Virus record (IMG/VR): IMGVR_UViG_3300036715_002626
Span: 1-24,728 of that record
DNA: 24,728 bases
Direction: 5' to 3' (one strand)
Source of the DNA: a virus
Shown: positions 13,134 to 21,319 of the stretch, one piece after another
Numbering within the stretch: the stretch's first letter is position 1
Layout of the letters: each line of letters opens with the position of its first letter
Program-made: the position numbers and the translations under genes
Notes under the pieces: generated by a model
Told to the model about the DNA's origin: nothing
What the model saw: only the letters and a program-made list of their open reading frames with translations
The model's database searches: none

Positions 13134-13200
13134 GCTTGGCTTCCATCGGGAACAGCGCGTTCATCACGTCACGCCAACCACACCCCGAAAGGAACACGCC
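13134..13200 (+). repeat. conserved leader repeat, copy 1 (before the DUF6900-like gene)
   Basis: This 67-base leader ends at the ATG of the first island gene. It holds GCTTGGCTTC, a 6-base spacer, GAACAGCGCGTTCATCAC, then CCCGAAAGGAA as ribosome site region. The two blocks have the same spacing in all three copies. A TTGGCT-17-GTTCAT arrangement also fits a weak promoter. Unlike copies 2 and 3, no hairpin arm precedes it. Confidence 0.8.
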
Positions 13201-13423: not shown

Positions 13424-13455
13424 CCAAGCGCCAGAACCGATCAAAAGGCGCTTGG
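13424..13455 (+). other. hairpin at the start of leader copy 2
   Basis: CCAAGCGCC (13424-13432) pairs perfectly with GGCGCTTGG (13447-13455) across a 14-base loop. The right arm is the first block of leader copy 2. No T run follows, so it is not a standard terminator. Confidence 0.6.
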
Positions 13456-13515
13456 CTTCACTCCCGAACAGCGCGTTCATCACATCGTCATCTACCAACC
13501 CCGAAGGAGCAGCCC
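13450..13515 (+). repeat. conserved leader repeat, copy 2 (before the DUF3489 gene)
   Basis: This 66-base leader has the same plan as copy 1. GCTTGGCTTC, six bases, and GAACAGCGCGTTCATCAC (all 18 bases identical to copy 1) are followed by CCCGAAGGAG and the ATG. The variable bases between the blocks differ, so it is not a recent duplication of the whole region. Confidence 0.82.
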
Positions 13516-14117: not shown

Positions 14118-14134
14118 GCCAAGTGGCGCTTGGC
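14118..14134 (+). other. hairpin at the start of leader copy 3
   Basis: GCCAAG (14118-14123) pairs with CTTGGC (14129-14134) around a 5-base loop. As in copy 2, the right arm belongs to the conserved CTTGGCTTC block. It lies about 20 bases after the DUF3489 stop and lacks a T run. Confidence 0.5.
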
Positions 14135-14194
14135 TTCTCAATCGAACAGCGCGTTACTACGGGTGTCGCAACGATCAACCCGAAGGAGCCAGAG
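14128..14194 (+). repeat. conserved leader repeat, copy 3 (before the third island gene)
   Basis: This 67-base leader has GCTTGGCTTC, a 6-base spacer and GAACAGCGCGTT, then a diverged middle, then CCCGAAGGAG and the ATG. Block spacing is identical to copies 1 and 2, and distance to the start codon differs by at most one base. Confidence 0.8.
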
Positions 14195-14563
14195 ATGAAC
14201 ACCACCACGCAGATCCCCGCCACCCAAAACGATGCCTGGGGCTTTTGGGGCACGATGAACGAACACGCCAGCGCCGCATGGCCCCTGGCGATGGCCGCCA
14301 TCTCGGACGCCACCGGCCAGCCCTTCGAATCGGTACGGGTCTTCCTCGACAGCCGCCACGGACGCTACTTTGCGGACGACGTCCAGAACGGTCTCTATCA
14401 GGGCCAGTCCCTGGCGAACGCGATCAACGCCGCCACGGAGCGCTGGATGGGCTGGACGATTGGCCGCCAGACCAGCAAGCAGTACGGCATCCCACGCGGC
14501 CTGCCTTACCTGACGGGCTTCGTGATTCACTGCGAGATCCTCGACGAGTCGCTCGCTGCCTGA
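14195..14563 (+). CDS. conserved hypothetical protein of the plus-strand island
   Basis: This 122-residue protein begins MNTTTQIPATQNDAWGFWGT behind AAGGAG. It is rich in aromatic residues and contains AWPLAMAAISDATG, VRVFLDSRHGRYFADDV, ERWMGWTIGRQTSK and GLPYLTGFVIHCEI. I recall similar proteins on plasmids and integrative elements, without known function. There is no signal peptide, membrane segment or catalytic motif. Its 3' end overlaps the convergent methyltransferase gene by 37 bases. A longer frame starting at 14123 would swallow the leader repeat and is rejected. Confidence 0.82.
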   Translation: MNTTTQIPATQNDAWGFWGTMNEHASAAWPLAMAAISDATGQPFESVRVFLDSRHGRYFADDVQNGLYQGQSLANAINAATERWMGWTIGRQTSKQYGIPRGLPYLTGFVIHCEILDESLAA

Positions 14564-15789
14564 TCGAGCGCCGCGCCATCCGCCTCGCGGGTGGCCTGCT
14601 TGCCGGTGAACTCCTCCCACCGGCGCACGATCACGTCGACGTACTTGGGGTCGAGTTCGATCAGCCGCGCAACGCGGCCTGATTTCTCTGCGGCGATCAA
14701 GGTCGTGCCCGAGCCACCGAAGGGGTCGAGCACCACGTTGCCGGGTCGGCTGGAATTGCGGATCGCGCGCTCGACCAACTCCACCGGCTTCATCGTCGGG
14801 TGCAGGTCGTTCTTCTGCGGCTTCTTGATGGCCCAGACGTCGCCCTGGTCGCGGTCGCCACACCAGTGGCGTGTCTCCCCCTCGGGCCATCCGTAGAGGA
14901 TCGGCTCGTACTGGCGCTGGTAGTCGGCGCGGCCCAGCGTGAAGGTGTTCTTGGCCCAGATGATGAAGGTCGACCACTTGCCACCGGCTGCGCGGAAGGC
15001 GGCCTGCAGCACATCCAGTTCGCTCGACGACATCGCCACGTACATCCCGCCCCGGCAATGCGCAACGGTGGGCGTCAGTGCGGCCAGCAGAAAATCGTAG
15101 AACCCGTCGCCCAAGTTGTCGTTCAGGATCGCGCGATCCTTGCCACGCATCTTGTCCTTCGCGCTGTTGGCGTAGTTCACGTTGTAGGGCGGGTCTGTGA
15201 AGACCATGTCGACCGGCTCGCCTTGCAGCAAGGCCTCGTAGCTTGCATCCACGGTGGCATCGCCGCACAGTAGGCGGTGTGGGCCCAGCACCCAGACATC
15301 GCCCGGGCGCGAGATCGGCGTCTCGCCAATCTCCGGCACCGCATCCTCATCGGTCTGCCCCTCGTTGTCAGGCTCGTCGCCCGCGATCAGTTCGTCCAGC
15401 GCGTCGGCGTCGAAGCCGGTGATGTCGATGTCGAAGCCGTCCAGCTGCAAGGCTTCCAGTTCGATGCGCAACATCGCGTCGTCCCAACCCGCGTTCTCGG
15501 CGATGCGGTTGTCCGCGATGACCAAGGCGCGGCGCTGGGTCGGGCTCAGGTGATCGAGTACGACCACGGGCACGATCTGCAGCCCGAGCTTCTGCGCAGC
15601 CGCCAAGCGCCCATGCCCGGCAACGATCACGCCGTCACTGCCTGCAAGGATCGGATTCGTGAAGCCAAACTCGGCAATCGATGCAGCGATCTGGGCCACC
15701 TGATCATCCGAGTGCGTCCGCGCATTGCGTGCATAGGGCCGCAGTTTGGCGGTTGGCCACTGTTCGATCTTGTCTGCCAACCAGTTCAT
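14527..15789 (-). CDS. ParB-like domain / DNA methyltransferase fusion (DPPY type)
   Basis: This 420-residue protein has a ParB/sulfiredoxin-like domain (about residues 10-135) with ARNARTH and AGHGRLAAA. An acidic linker follows, then a methyltransferase with TDPPYNVNY (198-206), HPTMKPVEL (330-338) and the SAM-binding DPFGGSGTT (355-363). Having the catalytic motif before the SAM motif makes it a beta-class amino-methyltransferase; DPPY favours N6-adenine. It probably modifies phage DNA against host restriction. The ATG overlaps the upstream paralogue's stop by four bases. No restriction endonuclease is nearby. Target sequence is unknown. Confidence 0.93.
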   Translation of the reverse strand: MNWLADKIEQWPTAKLRPYARNARTHSDDQVAQIAASIAEFGFTNPILAGSDGVIVAGHGRLAAAQKLGLQIVPVVVLDHLSPTQRRALVIADNRIAENAGWDDAMLRIELEALQLDGFDIDITGFDADALDELIAGDEPDNEGQTDEDAVPEIGETPISRPGDVWVLGPHRLLCGDATVDASYEALLQGEPVDMVFTDPPYNVNYANSAKDKMRGKDRAILNDNLGDGFYDFLLAALTPTVAHCRGGMYVAMSSSELDVLQAAFRAAGGKWSTFIIWAKNTFTLGRADYQRQYEPILYGWPEGETRHWCGDRDQGDVWAIKKPQKNDLHPTMKPVELVERAIRNSSRPGNVVLDPFGGSGTTLIAAEKSGRVARLIELDPKYVDVIVRRWEEFTGKQATREADGAALDQAASDSSRISQ

Positions 15790-17201
15790 GCCAGCACCTC
15801 ATCATCAACGGTGGTGGCGCGCTCGGCGGCAACCTGTTCGAACGATTGACCTGTTGCCAGCAGCGTGACCGGCACGCCAGGGTGGTTCTGCTGAAAGCGC
15901 TTGATGGCCACGTCCACGTACTGCGGTGCGATCTCCATGCTGCGGCAGAGGCGGCCAGTGCGCTGCGCAGCCAGCATCGTGGTACCGCTTCCACCGAAGG
16001 GCTCGAACACAATGTCTCCGGCTTCGGTGTAAGCCTCGATGGCAAACTCCGGCAACGCCACCGGGAACACAGCCGGGTGATCGATGTCCTGCCCGATCTT
16101 GCCCTTGTGGCGCATCACGCGGATCACCGAGTCGGGGATGCGAGTGTCCTGCGTCGGCTGACCCTTGTGTGTCCAGCCGCCGACCTCGCCATCCTTGCCG
16201 CGCATCGCCGTGGACGTCCCGTCAGCGCGCAGGTGCGATTCCTGCCCAGCGTGCTTGCAGGGCACGATCTTGTTCGGCTTGCGGCTTTCGCGGTTGAAGT
16301 GGAAGACGAACTCGAAGCTCGGGGCCAGTCGGCCCTGCCAGTCGCCAGGCATCCCCGGCCCCTGATCCCAGACGTACCACGCAAAGCGCCGCCAGCCCTG
16401 CTGGCGCATCCAAGATAGCCAACCGTCCCAATACGGGATCACTTCGTTGTCGCGGTGGATGAGGCCAAGGTTGACCAGCACCTGACCATCGGTCGCCATC
16501 GGCAGGTGTGCAAACACGCCGCGCATCAGGCCATCCCAATCGGTGATGCCGCCCGAGGTGTAATCGCGCTGGTTGCCGTAGGGCGGCGAGGTGAAGCACA
16601 GGCGAGAGACTTCACCCTTCATCAGCGCAGCGACCACGTCCCGGTCGGTGGCGTCGCCACAAATCAGGCGGTGCGACCCGATGGCCCAGACATCGCCGGG
16701 GCGCGACACCGCCACGACCGGCGCATCCGGCACGTCGTCCGCTGCGTCCGGCTCGTCGGTATCCGGCTCCGGGTCGGTACCGTCGTCGGTCACATCACCC
16801 GTGAGCAGCGCTTCAATCTCGGCATCCTCGAAACCGGTCAGGGCAAGGTCGTACCCGGCCTCGGACAAATCGGCCAGCTCCAGGGCCAGCATCTCTTCGT
16901 CCCAGCCCGCATCAAGCGCCAGCCGGTTGTCGGCGATCACCAGCGCCCGTTTCTGCGCGACGGTCAGATGGGCCAGTTCGATCACCGGCACCTGATCCAG
17001 GCCGAGCTTGCGGGCAGCGGCCAGACGCCCATGCCCGGCGATGATGCCGTTGTCGCCATCGACCAGGATCGGGTTCGTCCAGCCGTACTCGACGATGCTG
17101 GCCGCTATCTTGGCGATCTGGCCATCGGCGTGTGTGCGCGGATTGCGGGCGTAGGGAATCAGCGCCTCGACCTTGCGGTACTCGACGTTGAGCGTGTTCA
17201 A
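15786..17201 (-). CDS. ParB-like domain / DNA methyltransferase fusion (SPPY type)
   Basis: This 471-residue paralogue of the next gene has the same order: ParB-like domain (about 5-135) with ARNPRTHADGQ and AGHGRLAAA, a long Asp/Pro-rich linker (136-160), then the methyltransferase. The catalytic motif is TSPPYGNQ (204-211) and the SAM motif FEPFGGSGTT (399-408). An SPPY motif is common in N4-cytosine enzymes, so it may modify a different base from its DPPY neighbour; this is inference. The only start found is TTG at 17201, with GGGAAG upstream and a terminator-like hairpin just before it. Low expression or tight control is possible. Confidence 0.92.
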   Translation of the reverse strand: MNTLNVEYRKVEALIPYARNPRTHADGQIAKIAASIVEYGWTNPILVDGDNGIIAGHGRLAAARKLGLDQVPVIELAHLTVAQKRALVIADNRLALDAGWDEEMLALELADLSEAGYDLALTGFEDAEIEALLTGDVTDDGTDPEPDTDEPDAADDVPDAPVVAVSRPGDVWAIGSHRLICGDATDRDVVAALMKGEVSRLCFTSPPYGNQRDYTSGGITDWDGLMRGVFAHLPMATDGQVLVNLGLIHRDNEVIPYWDGWLSWMRQQGWRRFAWYVWDQGPGMPGDWQGRLAPSFEFVFHFNRESRKPNKIVPCKHAGQESHLRADGTSTAMRGKDGEVGGWTHKGQPTQDTRIPDSVIRVMRHKGKIGQDIDHPAVFPVALPEFAIEAYTEAGDIVFEPFGGSGTTMLAAQRTGRLCRSMEIAPQYVDVAIKRFQQNHPGVPVTLLATGQSFEQVAAERATTVDDEVLA

Positions 17202-18177: not shown

Positions 18178-18642
18178 TCAGACCTCCTGCGTCTCGATGG
18201 CCCAGTGCAGCAGTGCCAGGGCATCGGCTTCGTTGTCATCAACCGGAGCGTGGCCACGCGCACGAACGGCTGTGATCACGTCCTCCTTGCCTGCATTACC
18301 TTTGCCGGTCGCGTGCTTCTTGATCGTGCCGACTGGCACGCCCTGGTACGGGATCTGGTGGTGCTCGCACCACGCCGTGAGCGTGGCCAGGAATCCGCCG
18401 TAGGCGTGCGCGGCATCGGTCGAGACGTGGCGGCGCACTTCCTCGAAGTAGAGGCAATCGATGCCGTCGCCGGATTGCTTGATCTCCGTGAGCCAGCGCT
18501 TGAAACGCAGGAAGCGCATGCCACCCCCTTCGAAGCGTTGTGGGCGGAAGCTCTCGGAGCCACTCGTGATGTGGCCGTCGTTACCGTGCAGCGCCCAGCC
18601 GGTGGTGGTGCCCAGATCGAGGGCGAGGATGGTCGTGGTCAT
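18178..18642 (-). CDS. RuvC-like Holliday junction resolvase
   Basis: This 154-residue protein begins MTTTILALDLGTTTGWAL. The RNase H-fold acidic residues are Asp9 in LALDLG, Glu67 or Glu68 in LYFEEVRRH, and Asp136/Asp140 in DDNEADALALL. The TIKKHATGKGNAGK segment (107-120) is typical of RuvC-family substrate-binding loops. Length and motifs fit phage RuvC-type resolvases, which cut branched DNA before packaging. The ATG at 18642, behind AAGGA, is chosen; a longer frame would run through the inverted repeat. It is the first gene after that repeat, and the primase-helicase lies beyond it. Confidence 0.92.
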   Translation of the reverse strand: MTTTILALDLGTTTGWALHGNDGHITSGSESFRPQRFEGGGMRFLRFKRWLTEIKQSGDGIDCLYFEEVRRHVSTDAAHAYGGFLATLTAWCEHHQIPYQGVPVGTIKKHATGKGNAGKEDVITAVRARGHAPVDDNEADALALLHWAIETQEV

Positions 18643-18666: not shown

Positions 18667-18767
18667 GGTCTGACGCTTCCGACGGATCATGTCGTAACTC
18701 TCCGTGACGCGCGCACGCGCACGCGCGTATAGAGAGTTACGATGTAGAGCGTCGGAAGCGTCAGGCC
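18667..18767. repeat. large nested inverted repeat / potential cruciform
   Basis: Three nested dyads share one centre. The outer arms are 18667-18683 and 18751-18767 (17 bases, one mismatch, core CTGACGCTTCCGAC). The middle arms are 18692-18702 and 18732-18742 (11 bases, perfect). The inner arms are 18707-18713 and 18722-18728 (ACGCGCG/CGCGCGT). The outer and middle stems are separated by symmetrical 8-base internal loops. It fills most of the 143-base gap between primase-helicase and resolvase. It lacks a T run, so an origin-like or structural role is more likely than termination. Confidence 0.85.
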
Positions 18768-18785: not shown

Positions 18786-21068
18786 TCAGTTGTCGGCATA
18801 AGGGGTGTAGGCCGGCTTGGGCGGATTCTTGAGACCCACGCCCCGAAAGCCGCGCACACCCACACTGTTGCGCCACTTCTCCAGCCCGCGCGTGATCAAG
18901 AGATCGGAGAAGCGCCGCTGCGAGCCGACAAACTCACCGGCACTGTCGGCCCACTGCTTCCAGTCATTGAAAAGTTCGGCGGTCAACGACTTGGCGTTGG
19001 CTTCGCGCACGCAGCGCTCGTCGAGCCAGCGGCCTAGCGCGTCCTCAGCTTCGAAATACTCCTCGGTGGCTTCCACCACACGCCGGGGCGGATCGAGTCG
19101 TCCATGGCGCTGCCAGTCCAGACACCCTTGAACCGCCCAGGCCAGAATGCCGTCACGCTCGGCCAGCAATTTCTGCTGCAGGTGCTTGTCGCGGCGCTCA
19201 GGCGGCACGGTAATCGTGAAGGGGATCAGGTGCAGTCGACGCTTCATCGCCTCGTCGATGTTGCGAATGGCCGGCTTGTGGTTGCCAGCGACAAAGAGCT
19301 TGAACTGCGGGAAGAACTCGAAGAAGTCCTGGCGCATGAAGCGCGCGGAGATCTTGTCGCCACCGGTCAGGTTCTTGAGCTTCGATTCCGCCCAGCGTCG
19401 CCCCTGCTCGGTTTCGATCGCCGCGACGAAACGTGCACCGCGCAGGCCTGCCATATCGGTCGGGTGCCGATCAGTCCGCGTCTCCATGAAGGTGTCCATA
19501 GGCGCGTTTGTCGCGTAGTCCCCGAGGATGGTGGCCAGGGTGTTCACGAACACCGACTTGCCGTTCGCGCCAGTGCCATACAGGAAGAACAGTGCATGCT
19601 CCTGCGTCGAGCCGGTCAGCGCATAGCCCACCATTCGTTGCAGATAGGACTGCAATTCCACGTCACCACCCGTAACTTCATCGAGGAACCTTCGCCAGGT
19701 CGGGCAGTCACCTCCAGGTGTGGCCGTGGTGATCTTGGTCATCCGGTCGGCACGGTCATGTGGTCGCTGACGTCCAGTCTTGAGGTCGACAACGCCGCCT
19801 GGGGTGTTGAGCAGCCACGGATCAGAATCCCACTCCTCGGTGGTGGCGGCATGTCGACGATCTGCCCTGGCCAGCCGTTCCACACCGCCGACCGTGCTCG
19901 AACTGGCAAGCTTGGCCGCCACCTTGGGATTGTCTGCGCGCACAGCGGCGTGCCGGCAAACGCAGCGGATCAGATCGGTTGCGGCCAGCGTGTCCTCGGT
20001 TCGCCAACGATTGCCGTCCCACACCAGCCAGCGCCCCCAGCCTGCGACGTAACGCCAGTCACGGTGATAGCGCCGGGTAAAGGCCAGCGCCAGCGCGTCC
20101 TCCGTACCCCACACCGATTCGTCGCTACTGACGACGGGTTCGGCATCCTCTGTCACGTCGTGCATCTGCAATCGCGGGCCATGGGCGAGGAAAGCGGCGA
20201 CGTCAAAACCCTCGGCAATGGCATCGGCCGCATCCCAGCCGTCCGCCGCCTCCTCGGGCGGGTACAGGATGAAGCACGACTTCGCACCCGCCGACAGGAT
20301 GGCTTGTGCCGCCTGTGTCGCGTACTCCCAGCCCGGCTTATCACGGTCGGGCCAGATCAGCACGGATTTGCCTGCCAACGGCGACCAGTCGGTCTTCTCG
20401 ACCGGGGCGTTCGCGCCGTGCATCGCGGTGGTCGCCACGATGCCGGCATCGATCAAGGCCTGCGCGCACTTCTCGCCCTCGACCAGAACGACTTGGGCAG
20501 CATCCTTCATCCCCGGCTGGTTGTAGAGCGGGCGCGGGTCGGGCGGTGCCATCTTGCGCCGCTTCGCATCCCACGGCCGGAACTGCTTCTTTTGCCCTGG
20601 TGGGTCGTAGCGGTAGACCACCGCTACCAGGTGCCCACTGGCATCCAGGTAGTCCCACTTGGCCGTGGCCGGGCCCAGATCATCGACCGGGGCTTCCTTC
20701 CTGGCTTTGCGTGACGGCGCTAACCTGGCCCGTCCAAGCAGGTCGGCGGATTGCTCCAGCACCCGAGGGAAGTCGGCGTGGACATCGATGCCGAAATGCC
20801 CGCCGATCAGTGTGAAGATGTCGCCGCCGTCACCGGTAGCGCGATCCGTCCATAGCCCCGCCTTCTCGCCATCGAGTACCACCTCGAGGCTGTCGCCCGG
20901 ACTGCCCAGTGCGTCGCCGATGAGGAATTTGCCATTGCGCTTTTTTCCAGCAGGGAACATCGTGGTCAGCACCGACTCCAGGCGTACGAGCAGTTCTGCT
21001 CGAATCTCGTCGCGATCTGATTCCCGGCTGTGCTCCTCAGTTTGAGTCGTGTTGTTGAAGTCGATCAT
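18786..21068 (-). CDS. primase-helicase, P4 alpha / D5 type
   Basis: This 760-residue replication protein has a degenerate primase N-terminus (about residues 20-110). A TOPRIM-like part follows with VEGEK (196-200) and WPDRDKPG (239-246). A D5_N-like linker spans about 340-480. The SF3 helicase shows Walker A GTGANGKS (498-505), an acidic strand FVAAIETEQG (547-556), and sensor and arginine-finger-like FVAGNHKP and MKRRLHLIPF (592-617). It would prime and unwind phage DNA. The ATG (MIDFNN) overlaps the HTH gene stop in ATGA. A large plus-strand frame across 19104-20714 is antisense. Confidence 0.95.
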   Translation of the reverse strand: MIDFNNTTQTEEHSRESDRDEIRAELLVRLESVLTTMFPAGKKRNGKFLIGDALGSPGDSLEVVLDGEKAGLWTDRATGDGGDIFTLIGGHFGIDVHADFPRVLEQSADLLGRARLAPSRKARKEAPVDDLGPATAKWDYLDASGHLVAVVYRYDPPGQKKQFRPWDAKRRKMAPPDPRPLYNQPGMKDAAQVVLVEGEKCAQALIDAGIVATTAMHGANAPVEKTDWSPLAGKSVLIWPDRDKPGWEYATQAAQAILSAGAKSCFILYPPEEAADGWDAADAIAEGFDVAAFLAHGPRLQMHDVTEDAEPVVSSDESVWGTEDALALAFTRRYHRDWRYVAGWGRWLVWDGNRWRTEDTLAATDLIRCVCRHAAVRADNPKVAAKLASSSTVGGVERLARADRRHAATTEEWDSDPWLLNTPGGVVDLKTGRQRPHDRADRMTKITTATPGGDCPTWRRFLDEVTGGDVELQSYLQRMVGYALTGSTQEHALFFLYGTGANGKSVFVNTLATILGDYATNAPMDTFMETRTDRHPTDMAGLRGARFVAAIETEQGRRWAESKLKNLTGGDKISARFMRQDFFEFFPQFKLFVAGNHKPAIRNIDEAMKRRLHLIPFTITVPPERRDKHLQQKLLAERDGILAWAVQGCLDWQRHGRLDPPRRVVEATEEYFEAEDALGRWLDERCVREANAKSLTAELFNDWKQWADSAGEFVGSQRRFSDLLITRGLEKWRNSVGVRGFRGVGLKNPPKPAYTPYADN

Positions 21069-21319
21069 TCGGCCTCCTCGACGGGTGCGGCAGAATCCTG
21101 GGTATCCCGATCTTGGACGGCTGCGCTGCGCGCGGCCCAAGCGGAGAGTTCGGACAGGCGATAGCGCACGAGGCCGCCCATCAAATAGTGCGGAATCCGA
21201 TACTTGGTGCGCATCGCATGGTCGGAGAACCAGTAGTACGGCAGGCGTAGTGCGGCGGCCGCCTGCTTGGCATCGATCATCGGCTCGATGCCTTTCTCGG
21301 ATGTATTGTTGTCAGTCAT
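21065..21319 (-). CDS. small helix-turn-helix protein
   Basis: This 84-residue protein starts MTDNNTSEKGIEPMIDAKQA with GGAGG upstream and an ATGA overlap with the nuclease stop. The middle, IDAKQAAAALRLPYYWFSD followed by a basic stretch and GGLVRYRLSELSAWAA, has the layout of excisionase / AlpA-type winged HTH domains (about residues 14-62). The C-terminus is acidic. It could help the primase-helicase bind its origin or regulate this operon; neither can be decided. It also overlaps the primase start by four bases, so the two products are probably made in a fixed ratio. Confidence 0.82.
   Translation of the reverse strand: MTDNNTSEKGIEPMIDAKQAAAALRLPYYWFSDHAMRTKYRIPHYLMGGLVRYRLSELSAWAARSAAVQDRDTQDSAAPVEEAE

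What the first reader, a model, noticed from the sequence alone, without database searches (positions are those of the whole stretch)
18667..18767. Triple-nested inverted repeat between primase-helicase and resolvase
Three dyads with one centre give a possible cruciform of about 100 bases, with symmetrical 8-base internal loops. It lies in the only large gap of the replication module. It could be the replication origin used by the P4-type helicase, a preferred resolvase target, or a small non-autonomous palindromic element. The symmetry is too extensive for a simple terminator and no T run follows.
Basis: partly seen in the sequence, partly recalled or inferred. Interest (0 to 1): 0.7.

Follow-up and report, generated by a model that had tools for sequence, protein, structure and literature searches.

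The report
Prophage replication origin beside its helicase
The nested palindrome is almost certainly the DNA site where this prophage's own helicase-primase starts copying the phage genome: two facing pairs of 9-base-spaced binding sites around a GC-rich zig-zag core, a layout that turns out to be widespread behind this helicase family.

Summary
The palindrome is real (18667-18767; outer 15/15 bp, middle 11/11, inner about 8) and is the longest inverted repeat in the window; fold z = -6.7. It lies in the 143-nt gap between a TIGR01613 (P4-family, SF3/D5_N) primase-helicase and a RuvC-like gene. Nearly all relatives carry the same three-part element there, and all 20 hits in 15 host genomes lie there. 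Its arms covary strongly. Each outer arm is a pair of TGAC-type iterons, usually 9 bp apart; the pairs face each other across an alternating purine-pyrimidine core. Iteron sequence follows the last ~70 residues of the helicase (partial r 0.56), not the helicase core (0.11) or RuvC (-0.07); C-terminal domain swaps carry their iterons. Relatives without RuvC keep such an element; where the SF3 half is replaced but RuvC stays, the element is replaced. P4 crr and the annotated Sfi21 ori share the layout; PICI and pRN1 origins are literature precedents. Best reading: replication origin. Not a resolvase target, terminator or mobile repeat. New variant of a known kind: GC-rich and perfectly dyadic, and a layout described as PICI-only shown in prophages and plasmids. 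No experiment was possible.

The parts
18667..18767 (-). whole element: predicted replication origin (nested palindrome), read on the strand of the replication genes
18750..18767 (-). first iteron pair GGCCTGACGCTTCCGACG (TGAC N5 CGAC, 9-bp register) on the gene strand
18667..18684 (+). second iteron pair, facing the first (GGTCTGACGCTTCCGACG)
18732..18742 (-). inner dyad arm TCGTAACTCTC (conserved TCGTAAC motif)
18692..18702 (-). inner dyad arm GAGAGTTACGA (gene strand), partner of the above
18707..18731 (.). 25-nt uninterrupted alternating purine-pyrimidine core (CG/CA/TA steps), GC-rich, potentially Z-DNA or cruciform forming
18786..21140 (-). P4-family primase-helicase (D5_N, DUF5906, TIGR01613/PRK07078); proposed initiator; residues about 706-773 are the proposed iteron-binding domain
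18178..18642 (-). RuvC-like Holliday-junction resolvase gene; neighbour, not part of the origin

Best explanation
The element is the replication origin of the prophage. Shown: a conserved, covarying element made of two iteron pairs (usually 9-bp period) in opposite orientation around an alternating purine-pyrimidine core, placed right after the gene of a P4-family SF3 primase-helicase, with arm sequences that co-vary with the C-terminal domain of that helicase. Inferred: the C-terminal domain binds the TGAC iterons, each pair helps seed one helicase ring, the two rings face each other as in other SF3 initiators, the supercoil-sensitive core (cruciform or Z-DNA extrusion, easily unstacked pyrimidine-purine steps) opens in place of an AT-rich melting site, and the primase half starts bidirectional synthesis. 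RuvC acts later, on recombination or replication intermediates.
For: Conserved at the same place in nearly all relatives: gap 114-151 nt, outer dyad mostly 14-18 of 18, and in the primase-anchored loci where enough sequence follows. Pair covariation: 22 of 37 pairs with double changes, 0/500 shuffles as high; slid controls 5-8. Iteron distance correlates with the helicase C-terminal domain (r 0.68; partial 0.55-0.56, permutation p 0.001), hardly with the core (0.11) or the RuvC N-terminus (-0.07), although the RuvC start is about as close to the element. Natural swaps: C-terminal cluster 5 on three helicase cores always with GAGTGACGGATTTGAC; cluster 2 on two cores always with GGTGACCGAA.GTGACC. 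With RuvC and neighbours kept but the SF3 half replaced by another ATPase domain, the TGAC element is replaced by TTGCCAAC repeats plus another palindrome. RuvC-free relatives and plasmids have the same plan. Precedents: P4 crr and annotated Sfi21 ori, PICI (PMC6092414), pRN1 100-nt stem-loop needed in cis for replication (PMC4234260). Survey: 34/57 family loci have a significant dyad within 400 nt 3' of the gene against 1/28 in the 5' flank; 13/25 arms repeat with period 9 against 0.5 expected.
Against: No replication data. The core is 65% GC, not AT-rich as in PICI origins. Arm covariation could come from concerted change of four binding sites rather than from base pairing. Part of the iteron-domain link may be short-range linkage. 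The structure model of the C-terminal part is poor (pLDDT 53), so its DNA-binding fold is only suggested by the helix-helix-helix-strand-strand pattern. GC skew is uninformative. Some family members show no such dyad.
Confidence: 0.87

Rival explanations
1. The palindrome acts as RNA: a structured intercistronic hairpin (processing, stabilising or attenuating signal) between primase and RuvC in one transcript.
For: Same-strand flanking genes; very stable hairpin; pair covariation; in the RNAalifold-chosen pairs G-U exceeds A-C.
Against: No strand bias in foldability: RNA energies favour the coding strand in 24 of 41, p 0.21; G-T against A-C mismatches 51:40 in outer arms. The 8.4-kb plasmid relative has facing GTGAAC repeats upstream of its primase gene. 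Arm sequence tracks a protein domain. No Rfam match, no T run.
Confidence: 0.06
2. Only an operator: the four TGAC boxes bind a repressor or the primase itself to control downstream genes, without origin function.
For: Iterons often double as operators; position ahead of RuvC and the methylase genes.
Against: Same plan in cis-acting replication regions of P4, PICI and Sfi21; in a small plasmid it lies upstream of the primase.
Confidence: 0.04
3. Preferred target or loading site of the RuvC-like resolvase (cruciform cleavage).
For: Adjacent RuvC-like gene; a cruciform resembles a Holliday junction.
Against: Iterons do not track RuvC (partial r -0.07). Similar elements without the RuvC gene next to them in L240, phi105, P4 and Sfi21. 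Similar RuvC coexists with a different element when the helicase half differs.
Confidence: 0.03

Closest known systems
PICI/SaPI replication origins (PMC6092414)
   Same: Immediately 3' of the rep gene; two sets of iterons flanking a core; P4-like initiator helicase
   Different: Core here is GC-rich alternating purine-pyrimidine, not AT-rich; arms form near-perfect nested dyads; carried by a prophage with its own structural genes
Phage P4 crr/ori1 (NC_001609)
   Same: Primase-helicase of the same family; type 1 repeats with 9-bp register in facing sets, crr just 3' of alpha
   Different: P4 has two crr copies plus a distant ori; repeat sequence TGTTCACC; core AT-rich
Streptococcus phage Sfi21 ori (NC_000872)
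   Same: Annotated origin right after the primase; CTTTAGTTACTTAGTTAC, a tandem pair, and its perfect inverted copy
   Different: 8-bp period, AT-rich core
pRN1 plasmid stem-loop origin (PMC4234260)
   Same: About 100-nt stem-loop 3' of an SF3 replication gene; conserved in structure rather than sequence
   Different: Archaeal; prim-pol primase; described as lacking iterons

Membership tests
TIGR01613 P4-family primase-helicase (initiator gene) | Score above curated cut-off 108.7 bits | tested here: met
   381 bits; D5_N 136 bits
PICI/SaPI-type origin | Lies immediately 3' of the rep gene | tested here: met
   element starts 18 nt after the stop codon
PICI/SaPI-type origin | Two sets of iterons on either side of a core | tested here: met
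   (in opposite orientation here)
PICI/SaPI-type origin | AT-rich region between the iteron sets | tested here: not met
   core 65% GC, alternating CG/CA/TA
PICI/SaPI-type origin | rep plus ori drives autonomous replication | not testable with these tools
   needs a replication assay
pRN1-type stem-loop origin | About 100-nt stem-loop downstream of the replication gene | tested here: met
pRN1-type stem-loop origin | Archaeo-eukaryotic prim-pol domain in the initiator | tested here: inconclusive
   N-terminal part matched no Pfam domain; EGEKC/WPDRD motifs look Toprim-like by eye
Intrinsic terminator | T run after the stem | tested here: not met
REP/MITE-like mobile palindrome | Several copies at unrelated places | tested here: not met
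   single in window; 20 of 20 hits in host genomes between primase and RuvC
RuvC target site | Presence and sequence follow the resolvase | tested here: not met

The most novel reading that the evidence does not exclude
A general rule for a large replicon class: P4-family SF3 primase-helicases in phages, satellites and plasmids start at two facing iteron pairs with 9-bp register, specified by a swappable C-terminal domain; in GC-rich hosts the usual AT-rich melting site is replaced by an alternating CG/TG core that opens by Z-DNA or cruciform extrusion, so origin opening would be by structure rather than by low melting energy.
Probability: 0.35. Interest if true: 0.75.

Novelty: new variant of a known kind. 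Interest (0 to 1): 0.55.

Why it matters
It gives a precise, testable origin for a large group of uncharacterised prophages of beta- and gammaproteobacteria and links origin sequence to a swappable helicase domain. It extends to ordinary prophages and plasmids an origin layout that a 2018 paper described as shared by PICIs and 'no other known bacterial replicon', so that layout cannot alone diagnose PICIs. It also poses a clean question: how an SF3 initiator melts a GC-rich core.

Tried and rejected
Rfam scan (no match). GC skew in the window and in AcaML1 (minimum at 9.8 kb, element at 13.7 kb; confounded by gene direction). AlphaFold of the C-terminal part (pLDDT 53; not used for a fold search). 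Strand-bias tests for an RNA role: no significant bias, though centre T exceeds A on the gene strand (214:62), unexplained. RuvC target, mobile repeat and terminator readings rejected as above. Pfam Pox_D5 matches the C-terminal half in only 2 of 19 members, weakly. Literature searches for a description of this origin in such prophages found none in the held library.

Full report
Observation. The element is present as described. Outer arms 18670-18684/18750-18764 are 15/15 complementary, middle arms 18692-18702/18732-18742 are 11/11, and an inner CG-rich dyad 18708-18727 shares their centre at 18717. Internal loops are 7+7 and 5+4 nt, not 8+8. It is the longest inverted repeat in the window, and its fold is 6.7 standard deviations below shuffles. 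It lies in the 143-nt gap between the stop codon of a primase-helicase (18786-21140, minus strand; D5_N, DUF5906, TIGR01613 381 bits) and the start of a RuvC-like gene (18178-18642, minus strand).

Conservation. Searching with the RuvC protein gave 160 loci in viral contigs and bacterial genomes, plus phage AcaML1. In nearly all of them a related primase-helicase lies upstream (162 of 164 records, window and its two sub-loci included). Where the full SF3 helicase is present, the gap, about 114-151 nt, carries the same three-part element. Loci found with the helicase C-terminal half carry it as well. In 35 representative elements 87% of pair cells are standard, 22 of 37 pairs have double changes, and 85 cells are double-changed against 36.8 in shuffles; shifting the partners by 1-3 columns drops pairing to 26-45%. 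TGAC at the arm tip is nearly invariant, while the spacer bases between the two boxes change in concert (for example C-G 41 / G-C 24 and T-A 36 / G-C 17 / A-T 8).

Anatomy. Each outer arm is a tandem pair of boxes (TGAC N5 xGAC, 9-bp register; AcaML1 has three on one side), and the two pairs face each other. Between them lie TCGTAAC...GTTWCGA and an alternating purine-pyrimidine core averaging 20.8 nt, against 8.9 in shuffles; in the window it is 25 nt, 18707-18731, and GC-rich. Neither strand folds consistently better than the other, which favours a DNA rather than an RNA role.

What it belongs to. Distances between outer arms follow the last ~70 residues of the helicase (r 0.68), and this holds after removing the helicase core and RuvC (partial 0.56), while RuvC, whose start is about as close on the other side, gives nothing (-0.07). 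Domain swaps show it directly: one C-terminal domain type occurs on three different helicase cores and always with GAGTGACGGATTTGAC boxes; another on two cores and always with GGTGACCGAA.GTGACC. In about 15 loci RuvC is kept but the SF3 helicase half is missing (the match ends near residue 323); in L138, read in full, it is replaced by a different ATPase domain while the neighbouring nuclease and methylase genes are kept. The gap there is about 300 nt and holds, in most of these loci, TTGCCAAC repeats plus another palindrome. In relatives without a RuvC gene next to it the plan persists: Eleftheria terrae plasmid, Methylobacterium pMNOD03, Planctomyces pPL62-4, phage phi105, and a Thermaerobacter 8.4-kb plasmid, where it is upstream of the gene. 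A covariance model found 20 places in 15 host genomes, all between primase and RuvC; one genome gave none.

Known relatives. P4 crr, just 3' of the alpha gene, has type 1 repeats with 9-bp register in facing sets. The annotated Sfi21 origin, just after its primase, has CTTTAGTTACTTAGTTAC and its perfect inverted copy. PICI origins lie immediately 3' of rep with two iteron sets around an AT-rich region, and a rep-ori clone replicates (PMC6092414). In pRN1 a 100-nt stem-loop 3' of an SF3 replication gene is required in cis, works when moved, and needs an intact stem; its authors predicted the same for a Bordetella phage (PMC4234260).

Family survey. In TIGR01613 loci from two samples of 150 genomes and the plasmid/phage relatives, 34 of 57 have a significant long dyad within 400 nt after the gene, against 1 of 28 in the 5' flank. 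This set includes close relatives of the window. In 25 mostly divergent arms, 13 repeat with a 9-bp register against 0.5 expected (arms were picked and the known origins, so this is a description rather than a blind test). [quoted passage not shown] the survey does not support that restriction.

Mechanism. Best supported: the element is the origin. The helicase C-terminal domain recognises the iterons; two facing pairs seed two rings; the alternating core opens; the primase part starts synthesis. Binding, ring loading, core opening and bidirectionality are inferred from knowledge of P4 alpha, PICI Rep and other SF3 initiators. Since an AT-rich core, a stated feature of PICI origins, is absent, I do not file it as a PICI-type origin but as a variant that works like one.

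Limits. All evidence is comparative. Linkage may inflate the iteron-domain association, the structure prediction was poor, and skew was uninformative.

Noticed in passing
L250 (phage WOVitB) 412-600; L138 3681-3992: TTGCCAACT-type repeats lie 3' of RepA in Wolbachia phage WOVitB and in the RepA-like version of this module in Pseudomonas and Cupriavidus prophages; a candidate origin for phage WO.
   Followed up: partly
window 13134-13170, 13450-13486, 14128-14164: Three copies (65-100%) of a 37-nt sequence GCTTGGCTTC...GAACAGCGCGTTCATCAC ahead of small plus-strand genes; two share a further leader/start repeat. Possible shared regulatory leader.
   Followed up: no
window 14527-17201, minus strand: Two tandem DNA methyltransferase genes, at least one with a ParB-like N-terminal part, next to the replication module; AcaML1 also has two methylase genes there.
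   Followed up: no
Caldimonas genome G009, contigs C6, C60, C22, C13, C68: Five primase-element-RuvC loci in one genome, four with GGTGACCGAAGGTG-type iterons.
   Followed up: partly
element cores, gene strand: T exceeds A (214:62) in core interiors, a strand asymmetry that pairing alone does not explain.
   Followed up: no
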